64,000 bases of DNA from Candidatus Poribacteria bacterium (GTDB lineage: Bacteria > Poribacteria > WGA-4E > WGA-3G), in assembly GCA_028821605.1 (NCBI GenBank), contig JAPPFM010000059.1, forward strand, positions 62,001 through 126,000, read 5' to 3'. This document shows, in pieces, positions 21,179 through 55,070 of this stretch (positions within the stretch are counted from its first letter, which is position 1; each line of letters begins with the position of its first letter). The notes under the pieces were generated by a model that was not told the origin of the DNA, made no database searches, and saw only the letters and a program-made list of their open reading frames with translations. The position numbers were made by a program, and so were the translations under genes.

Positions 21179-21576
21179 AATTGCTCCTCCGTTGTTGATA
21201 CACCAATCGAGGCGTGGATCTGCGCAAATTTCCACGACTCGTCGGTTTTTTCTAAGACCCCTGTCATCCGCATCACGAATTCCTCTGGTATGCCCTGCCA
21301 CTTGAGTCGCCAGACCTGACGTGTGTAGAACCACGCGACATCGTCCCGTTCCTGTACCTCAAGGTTGATAAACTGAATGCTGAAATCCTCTGTGCTCGCG
21401 ACATGGTCCTGATAATACGTCGTGATGCCCGCGCTCCCCTCAACAACCTCGTCAGCATCGGTACCGATCTTGACGTAGTAGGCAGCGGGGAGCATCATTG
21501 CAGCGAGGGTTTCAGCATCTCCAACGACAAGTGCGTCAAAATACGCCTTTACCGTATCATGCGCATTCCGCATCAT
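21175..21576 (-). CDS. SnoaL / NTF2-like fold protein
   Basis: Start ATG 21576 (MMRNAHDTVKAYFDAL), with AGGA 5 bases upstream and a 20-base overlap with the TenA-like gene. The 133-residue product has the cone-shaped NTF2/SnoaL pattern: AYFDALVVGDAETLAAMM, EGSAGITTYYQDHV, DVAWFYTRQVWRLKW and GVLEKTDESWKFAQIHAS. Such proteins are small enzymes or binding proteins for hydrophobic or polyketide-like compounds; this one has no recognisable specificity. Its TGA stop overlaps the antitoxin GTG start. Confidence 0.75.
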   Translation of the reverse strand: MMRNAHDTVKAYFDALVVGDAETLAAMMLPAAYYVKIGTDADEVVEGSAGITTYYQDHVASTEDFSIQFINLEVQERDDVAWFYTRQVWRLKWQGIPEEFVMRMTGVLEKTDESWKFAQIHASIGVSTTEEQL

Positions 21577-22147
21577 GAATTCCTGTGAGCGCATCCCACA
21601 AGGCAGCACTCATTTTCTCACACGCCTGTACAACAGTGGCGTATGAATCCGATGGCAACGTGCCGATGTACGCAAGCAGCTTCTCCGCTTCATGCTCATT
21701 GTGTGAATGCGTTTCAAAGTAAGGCTCTACCGATTTCGGGAGCTGGTAGAATGCCTTTAAACCCGCGAGTTTCGATTGGGCAGTTGCTGGTTGCTGTGCT
21801 TCAAATGCATAGAGCGCGCCGAGGGCAGTCGTAGGTTCCGAAAAGAGTTCATCTGCTGTTTCCATCAGTGCTTTCACTTGCGGAATTTGTGCTTCGGTAA
21901 CAGTGGTGTCAAGTCCAGCTGCGAAGTCAGCCCACAAGTCGATGTGCTCCGTCTCTTCCGCTGCGATTTCGGCATCATTGAGGGTCTCCCAACCCTCTGG
22001 CATCATGGAAATAAAAGCCCCATATTCACGCGCATAGGATCGTAGGGCTTCGACTGGCAGCTCGCCAGCACTCCACGCTTGGTAAAAGGGATGATTGAGT
22101 AAGTTATAATCTGCAATTTTGCTGTCTAACGTTTGTTTGAAATCCAT
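21557..22147 (-). CDS. TenA / PqqC / CADD-like helical-bundle protein
   Basis: Start ATG 22147 (MDFKQTLDSKIADYNLLNHP); the open frame upstream is only tandem-repeat sequence. The 196-residue all-helical product has NHPFYQAWSAGELPVEALRSYAREYG, EETEHIDLWADFAAGL and ETHSHNEHEAEKLLAYIG. Those Glu and His positions resemble the di-metal ligands of CADD-type proteins in the TENA/THI-4/PQQC superfamily (CADD makes p-aminobenzoate from its own tyrosine in Chlamydia). TenA thiaminase activity is less likely without its Cys. It is the first gene of a five-gene overlapping operon with SnoaL, antitoxin, toxin and HAD genes. The function here is inferred only at superfamily level. Confidence 0.7.
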   Translation of the reverse strand: MDFKQTLDSKIADYNLLNHPFYQAWSAGELPVEALRSYAREYGAFISMMPEGWETLNDAEIAAEETEHIDLWADFAAGLDTTVTEAQIPQVKALMETADELFSEPTTALGALYAFEAQQPATAQSKLAGLKAFYQLPKSVEPYFETHSHNEHEAEKLLAYIGTLPSDSYATVVQACEKMSAALWDALTGIHDAECA

Positions 22148-22210
22148 TAAATTGATTACTCCATTTCTTTTGTGTGGATAAAGTTCAACAGGACGTTGAT
22201 GCTTTACACA

Positions 22211-22318
22211 GCAATTTTCGGTTTGCAAGCGACACCGACTTTTGAATAGCAAGTTTTCGGTTTGCAAGCGACACCGACTTTTGAATAGCAAGTTTTCGGT
22301 TTGCAAGCGACACCGAAA
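22211..22318. repeat. 39-base tandem repeat (about 2.8 copies)
   Basis: Units begin at 22211, 22249 and 22288. Each contains TTTTCGGTTTGCAAGCGACA, followed by CCGACTTTTGAATA in the complete units; the first unit is one base shorter and the third is truncated. It lies in the leader region of the TenA-like operon. The rest of the 22148-22576 gap holds a heptamer tract (about 22463-22490) and a promoter. Confidence 0.85.
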
Positions 22319-48584: not shown

Positions 48585-50474
48585 CTAAGCCATCGGTTTG
48601 AATTGACAACCTTCCACGAATATATCAAAGAAATCTGGTGTCGTTTCCAATTCAATATGCTCGATGTTGCTAACGAAAACTTCAATATGTGCGCGCTTCC
48701 TTTCAGAAAGGAGGACAGCGGTCGCACCTGCTACCGCGGCGTTACCGATTTTGACGACATTTGCCTCGGGTACAGGCGCGAGAAATCCAATTTCAACTGC
48801 ATCTTGCAAGTTAACATAATTGGCGAATCCGCCCGCTAAAAAGAGTTTCGTGATGTTCTCAGGAACGCAGCCGAAGTGTCGGAGAACAATATATTGTCCA
48901 CAATAGTTTGCTGCCTTTGCTTGTGCCAAATTGCTCGCGTCCTCGCGTGAGAAAGTAATGCCGTGTTCCGGTAGAAGCGACATAATGCGCTGCTTCCTAT
49001 CCGCAAAAACGCCCTTTGGTGTCATCTGATCGTTCCGACGCAGCTCAGCGAGGAGTGAAATCAGTCCAGAACCGCACAGTCCCTGTGGTGTTTCTCCGTC
49101 AATTGTATCATAGTCGAACTGATTACCATTCCATTTTACAGACTCAATCGCACCCGGGTAAGCAGGCATCCCGTATTCAATACCACCACCTTCAAATGCT
49201 GGACCCGCAGGACACGATGCCGCCACCATCCGCTCTGCATTGCCGACGACGACCTCTGTATTCGTTCCGACATCAACCAGCATGATGACCTCATCCCGTG
49301 AAGGAATATCGATCGAAACTAAATCCGCTGCAACATCTGCACCGACATGGCTGGCAATCAATGGCAGACTGGACACCATCGCCTTCGGATTCGCACGGAT
49401 CCCCAAGCGACGGGTCTTTTCAGTCAGTGAAGTGGTTGCGCGGACACCCTCCCGATATTCATGCTCAATCAGTGATTTATACGGTTTTTGACCGATGCTT
49501 TGGACATCCTGTTTGAAGAAAATGTCGCGCATTGTCGTGTTACCGGCGACGACAACCTCATAAATCTCTTGGCGGACGAAGTTGTGGCGGGTACACATCT
49601 CCATAATCTCGCTGTTTAGTGCAGCGATAAGTGAACGGCGCAGTTCTCCCTGAAATTCACCGTCGTAGGTGATGCGATTCATAATATCGCTACCACCGAA
49701 ACGCTGCGGGTTTTCAAAGGAACTGACAGAAACGGTTTCCCCGTTCTCCAGATTCACCAGATTTGCCACCACCGTCGTTGTTCCGATGTCTAATGCCAAC
49801 CCGTAGAGATGTCCTCGGTAGCGGTCAATAGGTTCGTCGTTGTAATAGACAGTCCCATCGCAATGAACGACTCTCGGATCTAATTCCGGTGCCCCTCCGT
49901 CCGTTACCACAGCATGCGTCAGAATTTTAGGTGTGCGCCGAAGTGGGGTGAACTCAATGTCCTTATCAACATCAAGGACAACCGCTTGGCAGGCGAGGCG
50001 ATAGTTGTCTCGGAGGAAGGCTTCTGCTTCATTGGGAGGTTGGAGACCCTCCATACCACGTTTAATCTCAACGATGCATTCGTGGCACTGTCCGGTTCGG
50101 AAACAAGAGGTAGGGACTTGGACGGTTAAATCGTCCGCATAATCAAAAATAGTTTTTCCGGGGGTGAGTTGATAGACCTTTCCGTCGCATGCGATCGTGC
50201 CTTGGGATTCTGCTGTTCCATCAGGCGCATCGGTTTCCCACGCACTCCGATAATCTAACTTATCGTCCCCGACACAGAGCAGACCCGTCCCTTCATCAAT
50301 CTTCCGCTGGTTTCGGCAGCCGAACTTTGCCGTGCAGTGGTCAAATCGATTTTTGTAGGGACAACGGTAGGTGGATTGTTCATCCGCATGGACAACCAAA
50401 CCTTCAAAAATTTGCGTGATTTTATCAAGTCGTTTTTCGTATTCGGCTTTATCTATTTTATTTATTTTTTTCAT
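48585..50474 (-). CDS. corrinoid activation / regeneration protein (RACo-like, 2Fe-2S + ASKHA)
   Basis: The 629-residue product has four parts. N-terminal (1-80): Cys-rich CPYKNRFDHCTAKFGC...LLCVG, a possible additional metal site. Residues about 95-180: plant-type 2Fe-2S ferredoxin (DGKVYQLTPG, TSCFRTGQCHECIVEIKRG, RLACQAV). Residues about 180-600: ASKHA actin-like ATPase with LYGLALDIGTTTVVANLV, VAGNTTMRDIFF, EVIMLVDVGTNTEVVVG, GLCGSGLI and KLFLAGGFANYVN, the DUF4445 / RACo pattern. Such proteins use ATP to reduce Co(II) in corrinoid methyltransferase partners. The partner is probably the B12 protein encoded at 53108. No ribosome-binding site is obvious at ATG 50474. Confidence 0.88.
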   Translation of the reverse strand: MKKINKIDKAEYEKRLDKITQIFEGLVVHADEQSTYRCPYKNRFDHCTAKFGCRNQRKIDEGTGLLCVGDDKLDYRSAWETDAPDGTAESQGTIACDGKVYQLTPGKTIFDYADDLTVQVPTSCFRTGQCHECIVEIKRGMEGLQPPNEAEAFLRDNYRLACQAVVLDVDKDIEFTPLRRTPKILTHAVVTDGGAPELDPRVVHCDGTVYYNDEPIDRYRGHLYGLALDIGTTTVVANLVNLENGETVSVSSFENPQRFGGSDIMNRITYDGEFQGELRRSLIAALNSEIMEMCTRHNFVRQEIYEVVVAGNTTMRDIFFKQDVQSIGQKPYKSLIEHEYREGVRATTSLTEKTRRLGIRANPKAMVSSLPLIASHVGADVAADLVSIDIPSRDEVIMLVDVGTNTEVVVGNAERMVAASCPAGPAFEGGGIEYGMPAYPGAIESVKWNGNQFDYDTIDGETPQGLCGSGLISLLAELRRNDQMTPKGVFADRKQRIMSLLPEHGITFSREDASNLAQAKAANYCGQYIVLRHFGCVPENITKLFLAGGFANYVNLQDAVEIGFLAPVPEANVVKIGNAAVAGATAVLLSERKRAHIEVFVSNIEHIELETTPDFFDIFVEGCQFKPMA

Positions 50475-50647: not shown

Positions 50648-51478
50648 CTAATTCTCTTCAATTAGTTTCTTCAAATCTTGAATAAAATGCTCGAAAAGTT
50701 TGACCTTGTCGCTTTCTTCAAGTTCTTCCGCTGTGAGTACGTAAGTCCCGTCAAGTTCTACCTCTGCAATGATTCGCTCTCTCTTTGGCACGTCTACAAT
50801 TTTTAAGGCTTCGTCTAAATCAGCCGTGATGAGATAGAACTTGATGGATGCTTTATTTTCCTCCGTCTGAAGTTTGCGTTTCCAATAAGCTTGCTCGATG
50901 ATCCGGTCTTTCAAATTAACCAGACACGAGATTACAGCGATAACGCGAGAATTTTCAGGCGTGTAAATAGCGAAATCAACATTTGGAAGGTAAGAATTGA
51001 ATTCTCCGTAGTTAATTGTCAAATGTCGTTTAACGTCTTCCAATTCTTCAGAAAGGGTGCTGCTATTTTCTAATTCATAACAACTAATCACCTTTAGATC
51101 TAACGCTTTAGCGGCTTCGGTGATAATATGTCTTATCCTTTCTCTAAAAGTACTGCCCTTAGCAGTACGCCAGTCTTTTCCCAGTTCGTCTGTCAAGGAA
51201 ATAGTTAAACCTTCCAAGGCAACAGTACCTGCAAGGTCACCCCATAAAGCGGATTCTCCATAGTGTTCGCTGAGTTGGTCCATGACATCTCTTGTGTCGT
51301 CAACAACGCTGAAATCTATGACATTCCGTTCTATCAGGATGTTTACTAAGGGGTCTACTAACGTGTCATTATATCCTAGCTCGTAAAGAGTATCGGTAAG
51401 AATGTTTTTCCTACCGTCAAGAGGGCGATCCTCACGTGCAGTTGGGGCTGCTATGATAGGTTTAGTTGTATTATCCAC
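50648..51478 (-). CDS. BsaWI-like restriction-endonuclease-family protein, degenerate active site
   Basis: GTG 51478 overlaps the previous gene's stop in GTGGATAA. The 276-residue product has NILTDTLYELGYNDTLVDPLVNILIE, then YLPNVDFAIYTPENSRVIAVI and SCLVNLKDRIIEQAYWKRKL. From memory the latter resembles BsaWI/CCGG-family type II enzymes, where SxKxxxR[D/E]R provides the catalytic Lys and recognition residues. Here the D (NVD) and final DR remain, but the Lys position is L, giving SCLVNLKDR. It is therefore probably catalytically altered, perhaps a DNA-binding subunit. No cognate DNA methyltransferase is in the window. Translationally coupled to the nuclease gene upstream. Confidence 0.6.
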   Translation of the reverse strand: MDNTTKPIIAAPTAREDRPLDGRKNILTDTLYELGYNDTLVDPLVNILIERNVIDFSVVDDTRDVMDQLSEHYGESALWGDLAGTVALEGLTISLTDELGKDWRTAKGSTFRERIRHIITEAAKALDLKVISCYELENSSTLSEELEDVKRHLTINYGEFNSYLPNVDFAIYTPENSRVIAVISCLVNLKDRIIEQAYWKRKLQTEENKASIKFYLITADLDEALKIVDVPKRERIIAEVELDGTYVLTAEELEESDKVKLFEHFIQDLKKLIEEN

Positions 51479-52673
51479 TGTTTAAATTTTCCTCACTATT
51501 AAGATTAATAAGATACTCACGCCCAGTATCAGAGATTTCCCAAATACCACGTGGAGAATTAACTATCATCAGCCCTCTATTTATCAATTCTCGGCGCATA
51601 TCGTGAACTCGATTTTCCCAATACAAATGTCCGGCCGGACGTTGTGATAGATCTATTGGTTTCAATTCATTTTCCATTAATCGGCGAACTGTTCTGAGTA
51701 CCTCACTGGTGATTGCAGAGCCACCAAGTTGGATTAAGGCTTTTAAAATAGGTAAAGCATAGCTCGTTCGTGGAAGTGGAGTATCAGAAACTTCAGCACT
51801 ATGTTGGTGCGAAAAGGCATTCCGTGTTGGGGGTTGTGGTGATTTTTGGGCATCCACATCGCAGAGGTATTCAAGCCCAGCATTAGAGATTTCCCAAATA
51901 CCCCACGGAGAATCATCTTTCATTAGACCTTTACTGATTAATTCTCGTCGCATGTCCTGGGTCCGATTATCCCAATAAAAATGACCGTCCGATCGACGGG
52001 ACTTATCTATTTCTCGCAGCTCATTAGCCGAATCCATGAATTGATAGACCAACTCTAATACTTGGTGGGTCGCTCCAGAACCTCCAAGACTTTCTAAGGC
52101 CCTCAGGATCGGTAATCCGTAACTCTGCCGTGGTAAAGGAGTATCGGACAATCGGGGTTGAAACGCTTCTTGTGCCTCCACTTTTGCTTTCCCTTGCTCA
52201 ACGTTAGACTTAGAGAGGTATTTTTTGAAATCCGATACTGCTTCTTGTTGTATCTCCAGATCAATTGAACAGAAAATCCTGTCTTCCCACGGGATAACCC
52301 TTCTTGCAGGCGTACTCGTTAAATTGGGCAGATAGAAATCCCATATCTTTCCATTTGTGATAACAGCTATTTCTATCCCTGCTTGAAAAGCATATTGGCA
52401 AATTTGTGCTTGATATTTCTCAATGCTTGTGCCCCAACGTTTACACTCAATGAACACTAAAGAGGTATCATCTTGCTGCAAAGCATAGTCAACTTTCCCA
52501 TCGCCGACTTTCTTTTCTGGAAATACCTCTAAAGTATATAAATTGTCATCTTGCCAATCTAAGGATCTGAGAATAGGGAGAACAATATACTGTTTAGTCG
52601 CAGTTTCATCAAACTTATGATTTTCAATTGTTTGCCTGCACTGTAGGATATCAGAAATAGTTTGTGCTAGCAT
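51471..52673 (-). CDS. HsdR_N-type PD-ExK nuclease with two Mrr_N-like winged-helix domains
   Basis: ATG 52673 (MLAQTISDILQCRQTIENHK) with GGGGAAGCGC upstream; an earlier in-frame start at 52805 is unsupported. The 400-residue product has a type I restriction R-subunit N-terminal-like nuclease domain (about 20-145) with D62 (GKVDYAL) and E76-C-K78 (VFIECKRWG), plus the QxxxY-like YQAQICQYA: an apparently intact PD-(D/E)xK site. After a Lys-rich linker come two similar Mrr_N-like modules (about 180-275 and 295-390), each starting SDTPLPR.SY.LPIL.AL and ending R-E-L-I-x-x-G-L-M...GIWEIS. It should cut DNA, with the duplicated modules recognising it. Stop overlaps the BsaWI-like gene. Confidence 0.75.
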   Translation of the reverse strand: MLAQTISDILQCRQTIENHKFDETATKQYIVLPILRSLDWQDDNLYTLEVFPEKKVGDGKVDYALQQDDTSLVFIECKRWGTSIEKYQAQICQYAFQAGIEIAVITNGKIWDFYLPNLTSTPARRVIPWEDRIFCSIDLEIQQEAVSDFKKYLSKSNVEQGKAKVEAQEAFQPRLSDTPLPRQSYGLPILRALESLGGSGATHQVLELVYQFMDSANELREIDKSRRSDGHFYWDNRTQDMRRELISKGLMKDDSPWGIWEISNAGLEYLCDVDAQKSPQPPTRNAFSHQHSAEVSDTPLPRTSYALPILKALIQLGGSAITSEVLRTVRRLMENELKPIDLSQRPAGHLYWENRVHDMRRELINRGLMIVNSPRGIWEISDTGREYLINLNSEENLNSG

Positions 52674-53107: not shown

Positions 53108-53866
53108 TTACCATTCCTCATCTGTCGCTTCAAGAAACTGCTTGGCGAGTGCGACACAAGCCAGTGCATCCTTACCGTATCCATCAGCACCCATATCATC
53201 GGCAAATGTTTGGGTAACCGGGGCACCGCCTACCATAATCTTGACCTCTTCCCGCAAGTCTTCGTCAATAAAGGCATCAATTGTTTTTCCCATGTTCGGC
53301 ATCGTTGTCGTTAGCAGTGCTGACATACCCAAAATCGGTGCTTCGTATTCCTCAACAGCCTCAATAAATTCATCTTCAGAGGTATCAACACCCAAATCGT
53401 ATACAACGAAACCCGCGCCGCGCAACATCATAATGCATAGATTTTTGCCAATGTCGTGCAGATCACCCTTGACGGTTCCCATAATCACTGTTCCAACAGG
53501 CTCAATGCCTGAATCCGAGAGAATCGGTTCAATATGCGCCATTCCCGCTTTCATTGCGCGGGCACAAGCTAAAACCTCCGGGACAAAGATGAAATTCTCG
53601 CGGAACTTGATGCCGACGATGCCCATCCCTGCGATGAGTCCGTCATCCATAATTTCCAGTGCTTCTGTGCCTTTTTCCAGAGCTGCTTCCGTTAACTCAT
53701 CAACGGTGTGGTGGTCGCCGTCAATAAGCGCAGCAGAGATGTCTTGCATGGCGGGTGTTGCCTGCGCGAATATCTCAATTGTCCGTTCTATTTCGTCAGG
53801 TTCTTCTAAGAACTCTTCAATCTCTTCTCTAAGAAATTCGTTTGCGATGTCATTAATAGATGCCAC
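53108..53866 (-). CDS. corrinoid (B12)-binding methyltransferase cognate protein
   Basis: GTG 53866, with GAGGAGG 11 bases upstream. The 252-residue product has a helical cap (LIDGDHHTVDELTEAALEKG, VGIKFRENFIFVPEVLACAR, MKAGMAHIEP) and a Rossmann-like B12-binding domain with the diagnostic DxHxxG lower-ligand motif in VKGDLHDIGKNLCIMMLRGA, then GMSALLTTTMPNMG and IMVGGAPVTQTFADDMGADG. This fits MtaC/MttC/MtbC-type corrinoid proteins, which carry a methyl group between a substrate methyltransferase and an acceptor. The N-terminal extension of about 30 residues is longer than usual. The predicted helpers (activator, homocysteine methyltransferase) lie downstream on the same strand, beyond the restriction-like genes. 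Confidence 0.92.
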   Translation of the reverse strand: MASINDIANEFLREEIEEFLEEPDEIERTIEIFAQATPAMQDISAALIDGDHHTVDELTEAALEKGTEALEIMDDGLIAGMGIVGIKFRENFIFVPEVLACARAMKAGMAHIEPILSDSGIEPVGTVIMGTVKGDLHDIGKNLCIMMLRGAGFVVYDLGVDTSEDEFIEAVEEYEAPILGMSALLTTTMPNMGKTIDAFIDEDLREEVKIMVGGAPVTQTFADDMGADGYGKDALACVALAKQFLEATDEEW

Positions 53867-54015: not shown

Positions 54016-54654
54016 TTAGAATTTTTGCCACATCGGGATAGCTACTACCAGTTCGTTTCGTAGTGCCTGAATCTCTTCAGATAGGAAAGAGAGTAAGCGT
54101 TGCATTATCCGAGTGGCATCATCTATCGGGCGAGCATCAAGGGCACGCTCAAGTTCTTCTTGCAATTGATAGGCTTCATTGAGTCGAGTCCACTTTTGGC
54201 TCCGATCGCGACCGTGTTGCTGTAGCCATGCCCGGTTCAGACGGAGTGTGGAAACGTGATATTCACCACAAGCTGTAAGAGACTGAAGCAAACCATCGTC
54301 AGATTCAATAAAATGAACTCCAACATCTTGTTCACGACACGGATCTGCAAAGCGATAGCCTCGGCGAAGTTGTTCGCTCGTCGGCCATTTGTCGTGTTTT
54401 ATCATATTGCACGGAATGCAAACCCAATAGAGATTGGTATAGTCATTGACAGGGCCGCCTCTGCTGCGTGGTTTAAAGTGGTCAATACAAAAGGCTTGGG
54501 GACCGCCTTTCATTTGCTCGTGAACACCGCAATAAGCACAACGGAAATCGAAGTCCCTGCGTAGATAAGGCTCAGCATTCCTATATCCAACTCTGCCTCT
54601 CATCACAGGTGGTGATTCTTGTCGACAGATACGAGGGGATGTTTTTTGATTCAC
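54016..54654 (-). CDS. HNH endonuclease
   Basis: GTG 54654 overlaps the Phd-like gene's stop (ATGTGA); a later ATG at 54603 (MRGRVGYRNAEP) is possible. The product (212 residues) has a classical zinc-bound HNH core: CAYC (C39, C42), IDHFKPRSRGG with catalytic His59, then YTNLYWVCIPCNMIKHDKWP with the Asn, second Cys pair and last His. The remainder is helical (LNRAWLQQHGRDRSQKWTRL) and may bind DNA or a partner. HNH enzymes nick or cut DNA. The overlap with an antitoxin-type gene suggests a toxin-like or defence role, but this is not proven. Confidence 0.8.
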   Translation of the reverse strand: MNQKTSPRICRQESPPVMRGRVGYRNAEPYLRRDFDFRCAYCGVHEQMKGGPQAFCIDHFKPRSRGGPVNDYTNLYWVCIPCNMIKHDKWPTSEQLRRGYRFADPCREQDVGVHFIESDDGLLQSLTACGEYHVSTLRLNRAWLQQHGRDRSQKWTRLNEAYQLQEELERALDARPIDDATRIMQRLLSFLSEEIQALRNELVVAIPMWQKF

Positions 54655-55070
54655 ATCAATTTTCTCAATTCTTGCAATTTGGTAACAACCTCCTCGAATC
54701 TCTGCTTCCAATTTTCATCTCGTAAGGTAGCGCGTCTCTGCATCGATTGTATGAGTGGCTGGGCTGCTTCCGCGTCATCAAGCTGTTGGTTCAACTCTGC
54801 CAACTTGATTTCTTCCTCGGATGTTAATCCAGTAGCAAATTTCTTATCCAGCAACTCATGATAAACCTCAAGCATGTCTGTAGGGAGTGCGTAGTCAAAG
54901 GCATTTTCACTTTCATCTGGGTGCCATTTGCGATACTCATCCATCGGGACAATTGCTGCCACGGGCTTCCCATTGTGTTCAAGGACAAGGCTCTCATGTC
55001 CTTCCCAACTTGCTCGAAGTAGATTCTCGATTTGAGGTGGAAGCTGGTCCAATGAGATTGTTTTATTCAT
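54651..55070 (-). CDS. Phd/YefM-like antitoxin-type protein
   Basis: ATG 55070 with AAAAAGGAGATGTACCC upstream. The 139-residue product starts MNKTISLDQLPPQIENLLRA and continues ESLVLEHNGKPVAAIVPMDEYRKW, the Phd/prevent-host-death fold used for operator binding. A long helical, charged C-terminal half (about 70-139, EEEIKLAELNQQLDDAEAA, WKQRFEEVVTKLQELRKLM) would wrap a partner. The following gene, overlapping by 4 bases, encodes an HNH endonuclease rather than a typical RelE/Doc toxin. Autoregulation is likely by family precedent. Confidence 0.78.
   Translation of the reverse strand: MNKTISLDQLPPQIENLLRASWEGHESLVLEHNGKPVAAIVPMDEYRKWHPDESENAFDYALPTDMLEVYHELLDKKFATGLTSEEEIKLAELNQQLDDAEAAQPLIQSMQRRATLRDENWKQRFEEVVTKLQELRKLM

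What the first reader, a model, noticed from the sequence alone, without database searches (positions are those of the whole stretch)
50648..52673. Two-gene restriction-like module without a methyltransferase
Gene 1 (51471-52673) has an intact D...ExK nuclease core of the HsdR_N type fused to two duplicated Mrr_N-like modules. Gene 2 (50648-51478), overlapping by 8 bases, resembles BsaWI-type enzymes but has SCLVNLKDR where a catalytic Lys is expected. No DNA methyltransferase is present within the window. A coherent reading: gene 1 supplies the cutting, gene 2 a repurposed recognition subunit, acting on modified or foreign DNA. I know of no described defence system with this pairing.
Basis: partly seen in the sequence, partly recalled or inferred. 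Interest (0 to 1): 0.75.

Follow-up and report, generated by a model that had tools for sequence, protein, structure and literature searches.

The report
Nuclease plus dead restriction-enzyme partner
In a sponge-symbiont bacterium, an apparently intact DNA-cutting protein sits beside a restriction enzyme that has lost its cutting site; in related species the dead partner is kept under selection and sits next to several quite different DNA-restricting nucleases, which suggests a shared non-cutting helper rather than half of one fixed enzyme.

Summary
Gene 1 (51471-52673, -) has a D62...E76-x-K78 nuclease core plus two Mrr_N modules. Gene 2 (50648-51478, -) is a BsaWI-type fold (Pfam 8e-23). Aligned to the BsaWI crystal sequence it has lost three catalytic positions, not one (E92>R112, D145>N166, K165>L186). 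None of 20 orthologues keeps the E/D/K triad; 14 of 14 close tandem paralogues keep it. Both genes are under purifying selection. The 'two-gene system without methyltransferase' is a local state. In four related genomes the same gene pair follows a methyltransferase and an HNH nuclease. Elsewhere gene 2 follows a GmrSD-type nuclease (9 copies), the methyltransferase+HNH pair alone (5) or an FRG-TPR-Mrr_N protein (1). The cognate methyltransferase family (83-93% identical in this family) is absent from this 98%-complete genome (best 40%). The window site carries a GmrSD or a methyltransferase+BsaWI-tandem cassette in sister species, and a TPR-gene remnant lies upstream of gene 1, so cassettes are swapped there. 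Best reading: gene 1 is an active, probably modification-dependent nuclease; gene 2 is a non-cutting accessory pseudoenzyme shared by several restriction effectors, so far found only in Candidatus Poribacteria. Mechanism is inferred, not shown.

The parts
51471..52673 (-). Gene 1, 400 aa: HsdR_N-type PD-(D/E)xK nuclease domain followed by two Mrr_N modules
   Evidence: start ATG shared with homologues, GGGGAAG upstream
52224..52673 (-). Gene 1 nuclease domain (residues 1-150); D62 at 52488-52490, E76 at 52446-52448, K78 at 52440-52442, Q90xxxY94
   Evidence: invariant in six homologues; dN/dS 0.06-0.08; no faster evolution than relatives
51849..52127 (-). First Mrr_N module (residues 183-275), the one present in the four closest homologues
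51510..51764 (-). Second Mrr_N module (residues 304-388), found only in this copy; 56.7% identical to the first, 57.6% to the Mrr_N tail of an FRG-TPR protein in L085
50648..51478 (-). Gene 2, 276 aa, GTG start, overlaps gene 1 by 8 bases; catalytically dead BsaWI-fold protein
51179..51478 (-). Gene 2 N-domain (about 100 aa, helical in the model); found only in Ca. Poribacteria; stands alone behind a methyltransferase and HNH nuclease in L105/L171
50651..51178 (-). Gene 2 C-domain, BsaWI-like; R112 at 51143-51145, N166 at 50981-50983, L186 at 50921-50923 replace E92, D145, K165 of BsaWI
   Evidence: BsaWI residues from PMC4652773
52744..52816 (-). Remnant of the 3' end of the TPR gene that lies at this place in sister species (ESVTDFERKNDVQLPKNIVVMLP*)
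   Evidence: 81-86% DNA identity to the TPR genes of L067, L094, L070; reading
53108..53866 (-). Left flank of the cassette site: B12-binding corrinoid protein
48585..50474 (-). Right flank of the cassette site: RACo-type corrinoid activator

Best explanation
A restriction cassette at an exchangeable chromosomal site. Gene 1 is an active nuclease: an HsdR_N-type PD-(D/E)xK domain cuts DNA, and the Mrr_N winged-helix modules recognise or tether to it (nuclease motif shown by sequence; cutting and recognition inferred). As its cognate methyltransferase family is missing from the genome, gene 1 most likely acts on modified or otherwise marked foreign DNA, in type IV fashion, or its cutting is conditional (inferred). 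Gene 2 is a pseudoenzyme: it keeps the BsaWI fold but has lost the catalytic triad, so it does not cut. It is co-translated with whatever restriction nuclease lies upstream and most likely works as a non-cutting DNA-binding or scaffolding subunit for it. Its N-domain, which can occur alone beside methyltransferase and HNH genes, is the likely contact part (inferred). It arose when this N-domain was joined to the C-domain of a BsaWI-type enzyme; the joint probably lies downstream of the E92 position.
For: Triad lost in 20 of 20 orthologues, kept in 14 of 14 close paralogues, with the alignment anchored on the BsaWI crystal sequence. ORFs intact; dN/dS 0.12-0.26 in the C-domain against the window copy, and low also for pairs where both copies already lack K165. 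Gene 1 motif invariant, dN/dS 0.06-0.08, no rate increase in the window copy. Gene 2 lies -8 to +24 bp behind the upstream gene in all 19 loci measured. Partner swap table. N-domain alone behind methyltransferase + HNH. Methyltransferase family absent from G000.
Against: No activity, binding or phage data exist. Gene 1 scores under the Pfam HSDR_N cut-offs and its model is poor (pLDDT 54.6). Modification dependence is inferred from absence of the orthologous methyltransferase; one of the other N6/N4 methylases in the genome (21 matches) could protect against gene 1. Five of 20 gene 2 copies still keep the lysine, so loss of cutting was gradual. C-terminal similarity to active paralogues suggests gene conversion, which could mimic constraint.
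Confidence: 0.5

Rival explanations
1. One reading: gene 1 cuts and gene 2 is its dedicated recognition subunit, together one two-subunit restriction enzyme for modified or foreign DNA.
For: Overlapping genes; adjacency kept in five genomes; dead active site; both under selection. The window copy keeps part of the recognition motif (K190-D191-R192 for R-(D/E)R).
Against: Only 5 of 21 gene 2 copies have gene 1 directly upstream (one copy ends at a contig edge). The closest gene 2 (82%) sits at the same site behind a GmrSD-type gene. The R-(D/E)R motif is degraded differently from copy to copy. Gene 1 brings its own Mrr_N modules.
Confidence: 0.2
2. Orphaned remnant: an older methyltransferase-HNH-gene 1-gene 2 cassette lost its first two genes and the remainder is decaying or idle.
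For: Four relatives carry the full four-gene order; a decayed TPR tail lies just upstream.
Against: Both ORFs intact; gene 1 nuclease domain dN/dS 0.06-0.08 and no faster than in the four relatives; second Mrr_N gained.
Confidence: 0.15
3. Gene 2 is a recombination border or hitchhiker: its 3' half is shared by most cassettes at two sites, offers homology for cassette swapping, and has no protein function of its own.
For: C-domain shared between gene 2 and the active tandem enzymes, both usually last in the cassette; tail fragments in G069 and G079; two sites with interchangeable cassettes.
Against: dN/dS about 0.2 over the gene, also after loss of the lysine; conserved close spacing to the upstream gene; N-domain kept alone in L105.
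Confidence: 0.12
4. Gene 2 is a restraint: it holds the upstream nuclease inactive or represses its expression until infection, replacing protection by methylation.
For: Occurs with nucleases lacking an adjacent methyltransferase (GmrSD cassettes, window); translational coupling.
Against: Also present where a methyltransferase exists; one inhibitor for unrelated nucleases is hard to picture.
Confidence: 0.08

Closest known systems
BsaWI (type IIP, W/CCGGW, CCGG family; PMC4652773)
   Same: Gene 2 C-domain: Pfam RE_BsaWI 8e-23; top structural hits PfoI, BstEII, AgeI, BsaWI; helical N-part plus C-domain of similar total length
   Different: E92, D145 and K165 replaced by R, N, L; R-(D/E)R changed to K-D-R; N-domain has no detected sequence relation; no methyltransferase alongside
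Tandem BsaWI-type R-M cassettes of Poribacteria (methyltransferase 437 aa + two about 226-aa enzymes; L087-L099)
   Same: Nearest relatives of gene 2's C-domain (47-57% identity), same two chromosomal sites, last gene of the cassette
   Different: Both enzymes keep E/D/K and R-E-R; short different N-part; with a methyltransferase
HsdR_N-type nucleases (HsdR N-terminal domain proteins)
   Same: D...ExK...QxxxY core; relatives of the domain in 30 of 85 genomes of the phylum
   Different: No helicase motor, no HsdM/HsdS; C-terminal Mrr_N modules
Mrr / type IV modification-dependent enzymes
   Same: Mrr_N modules with a PD-(D/E)xK nuclease, no cognate methyltransferase
   Different: Domain order reversed (nuclease first), HsdR_N-like nuclease in place of Mrr_cat, second protein gene 2
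GmrSD-type (DUF262) enzymes, type IV
   Same: Sister cassette at the same site: GmrSD-like protein + gene 2
   Different: Different nuclease chemistry (GmrSD_N + HNH-like C-end)
Heterodimeric type II enzymes (BbvCI, BtsI, LlaJI)
   Same: Restriction nuclease made by two genes
   Different: In BbvCI both subunits carry a catalytic site; here the second is dead and its partner changes

Membership tests
BsaWI / CCGG-family restriction endonuclease (gene 2) | Sequence family and fold | tested here: met
   RE_BsaWI 8.1e-23; Foldseek top hits PfoI, BstEII, AgeI, BsaWI, but E 0.01-0.1
BsaWI / CCGG-family restriction endonuclease (gene 2) | Catalytic residues E92, D145, K165 | tested here: not met
   R112, N166, L186
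BsaWI / CCGG-family restriction endonuclease (gene 2) | R-(D/E)R CCGG recognition motif | tested here: inconclusive
   K190-D191-R192 in the window copy, degraded in orthologues
HsdR_N-type nuclease (gene 1) | D...ExK core with QxxxY | tested here: met
   D62, E76, K78, Q90/Y94 invariant in six homologues
HsdR_N-type nuclease (gene 1) | Curated Pfam cut-off for HSDR_N / HSDR_N_2 | tested here: not met
   20.6 and 22.7 bits against 25.1 and 25; homologue L076 passes with 41 bits
Type I R-M | HsdM, HsdS and helicase motor next to HsdR | tested here: not met
   Gene 1 has no motor domain and the flanking genes are metabolic
Type II R-M | Cognate methyltransferase | tested here: not met
   None in the window; cassette methyltransferase family absent from the genome. 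A non-homologous protector cannot be excluded
Type IV restriction | Nuclease with recognition module, no methyltransferase | tested here: met
   HsdR_N + Mrr_N, no adjacent methyltransferase
Type IV restriction | Cuts only modified DNA | not testable with these tools
   Needs biochemistry
Known anti-phage defence system (PADLOC-DB 2.0) | Match to a system model | tested here: not met
   Only weak part-matches: REase_MTase_IIG 1.9e-4, Cas4 0.005, PDC-S02 0.0018

The most novel reading that the evidence does not exclude
Gene 2 is a generic restriction pseudoenzyme: a catalytically dead BsaWI-fold protein with a Poribacteria-specific N-domain that serves as shared accessory subunit for chemically unrelated restriction nucleases (GmrSD, HNH with methyltransferase, HsdR_N-Mrr_N), so that nucleases are exchanged while the dead subunit stays.
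Probability: 0.35. Interest if true: 0.7.

Novelty: new variant of a known kind. Interest (0 to 1): 0.5.

Why it matters
If true, it shows restriction enzymes turning into non-cutting subunits that are then reused by other restriction nucleases. The active tandem paralogues and the inactivated copies survive side by side at the same chromosomal sites, with graded loss of catalytic residues, so the path from enzyme to pseudoenzyme can be tested directly.

Tried and rejected
Cognate methyltransferase in the genome: searched, only 40% identical relatives. Catalytic lysine moved to K190: rejected as general rule, since the position is E, A or G in some orthologues and D145 is lost as well. Carriage by phages: no relatives of gene 1 or gene 2 confirmed in viral contigs. 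Plasmids: only distant HsdR_N relatives of gene 1, at most 60% coverage. Gene 2 N-domain as ABC-3C middle component MC2: weak Pfam match (0.02, 4 of 11 members), no gene 2 locus matched in a genome search, profile comparison failed on coordinates; dropped. Fold of gene 1: model too poor to use. Promoter and terminator scan: nothing beyond chance. Literature: no paper with both Mrr_N and HSDR_N in a defence context found.

Full report
Observation. Two genes on the - strand, 51471-52673 (400 aa) and 50648-51478 (276 aa), overlap by 8 bases. Gene 1 has two Mrr_N modules (Pfam 3.8e-16) behind an HsdR_N-like nuclease domain; the HSDR_N scores are just under the curated cut-offs, but D62, E76, K78 and a QxxxY motif (Q90, Y94) are invariant in six homologues. 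Gene 2 matches RE_BsaWI at 8e-23.

Gene 2 is catalytically dead. In BsaWI the active site is E92, D145, K165 and D175, and R169-D170-R171 reads CCGG (PMC4652773). A profile of gene 2 relatives finds the BsaWI crystal sequence (4zsf, 3.3e-7), and the alignment puts E92, D145 and K165 on R112, N166 and L186 of the window protein, and R-D-R on K190-D191-R192. Of 20 gene 2 copies from 18 genomes none keeps all three residues; single residues survive in some copies (lysine in five). All 14 close paralogues, most of which occur as tandem pairs behind a 437-aa methyltransferase, keep them together with R-E-R. The AlphaFold model (pLDDT 75, pTM 0.67) has PfoI, BstEII, AgeI and BsaWI as top Foldseek hits, at weak E-values.

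Gene 2 is nevertheless kept. All 20 ORFs are open. dN/dS is 0.18-0.32 against the window copy over the whole gene. Window against the G065 copy, both with the K>L change, gives 0.19 in the C-domain. Caveat: exchange with active paralogues in the C-terminal part could add to apparent constraint. The tree of C-domains needs at least two transitions between gene 2 and active enzymes; copies L080, L082, L083 and L084 carry a C-domain nested among the active ones but share the gene 2 N-domain. All gene 2 copies but L085 lack E at the E92 column, so the joint probably lies after it.

Gene 1 is under strong constraint: dN/dS 0.06-0.08 for the nuclease domain against four homologues. The window copy is no further from three outgroups than its relatives are. 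These homologues (75-77% identical) have one Mrr_N; the second is peculiar to the window copy.

Context. Gene 2 loci fall into cassettes: GmrSD-type protein + gene 2 (9); methyltransferase (267 aa) + wHTH-HNH nuclease + gene 2 (5); methyltransferase + HNH + gene 1 homologue + gene 2 (4); FRG-TPR-Mrr_N protein + gene 2 with methyltransferase + HNH downstream (1); gene 1 + gene 2 alone (the window); one copy ends at a contig edge. The gap to the upstream gene is -8 to +24 bp in 19 loci. In L105/L171 the N-domain alone (97 aa) follows methyltransferase + HNH. In G027 HsdR_N-Mrr_N, FRG-TPR-Mrr_N, methyltransferase and HNH occur together without gene 2.

Cassette exchange. The window site lies between a B12-binding protein and a RACo-type activator. 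The same flanks, at 81-85% DNA identity, hold TPR-GmrSD-gene 2 in G065, methyltransferase-tandem enzymes in G060, and TPR-methyltransferase-tandem enzymes in G082. In the window a 73-bp piece at 52744-52816 matches the 3' end of the TPR gene of these species: a scar of replacement. Gene 2 of the window is closest (82%) to the GmrSD-associated copy at the same site, while gene 1 is closest to copies in another genus, so the pair as seen was probably assembled by exchange. A second site (xylose-isomerase-like, oxidoreductase, ABC genes) shows the same kinds of cassettes.

Methyltransferase. None in the window. The cassette methyltransferase is 83-93% identical within the family and 64% in a different family of the order; the best match in this 98%-complete genome is 40%. 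The absence is therefore genuine at the level of this gene family, but many other N6/N4 methylases exist in the genome.

Distribution. In 84,980 species genomes the gene 2 N-domain was found in 17 loci, all Candidatus Poribacteria. No relatives of gene 1 or gene 2 were confirmed in viral contigs.

Mechanism. Shown by sequence: intact nuclease motif in gene 1, dead site in gene 2, selection on both, partner exchange. Inferred: gene 1 cuts modified or marked DNA; gene 2 binds DNA or scaffolds the upstream nuclease without cutting. I give the overall reading 0.5.

Novelty. All parts belong to known families, except the gene 2 N-domain, which matched none. New, as far as the tools and library showed, is a dead BsaWI-fold protein kept as constant partner of exchanged restriction nucleases: a new variant of a known kind.

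Noticed in passing
L087, L088, L089, L091, L092, L094, L096, L099: Tandem pairs of BsaWI-type enzymes, both with intact active sites where aligned, behind a 437-aa methyltransferase: possibly a heterodimeric type II enzyme.
   Followed up: partly
window 54016-55070: HNH nuclease (Pfam HNH 1.3e-6) overlapping a Phd/YefM antitoxin-like gene (1.3e-7), a short distance upstream of the cassette, beyond the B12-binding gene.
   Followed up: partly
L082, L089, L093, L096: Truncated GmrSD-type genes (224-241 aa) ahead of methyltransferase cassettes, as if cassettes had been inserted into them.
   Followed up: no
L071, L076, L085, L150: FRG-domain proteins with TPR repeats, some ending in Mrr_N, travel with these cassettes.
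   Followed up: partly
L071 7835-8577, L072 6268-7010: A Gp49-like (DUF891, toxin-like) gene plus a 135-aa gene directly behind gene 2: a possible toxin-antitoxin pair beside the cassette.
   Followed up: no
G000 genome: 21 matches to N6/N4-type DNA methylases in one 6-Mb symbiont genome.
   Followed up: no
window 21557-22306: ORF that begins with tandem copies of LQTENLLFKSRCR, probably a non-coding tandem repeat.
   Followed up: no
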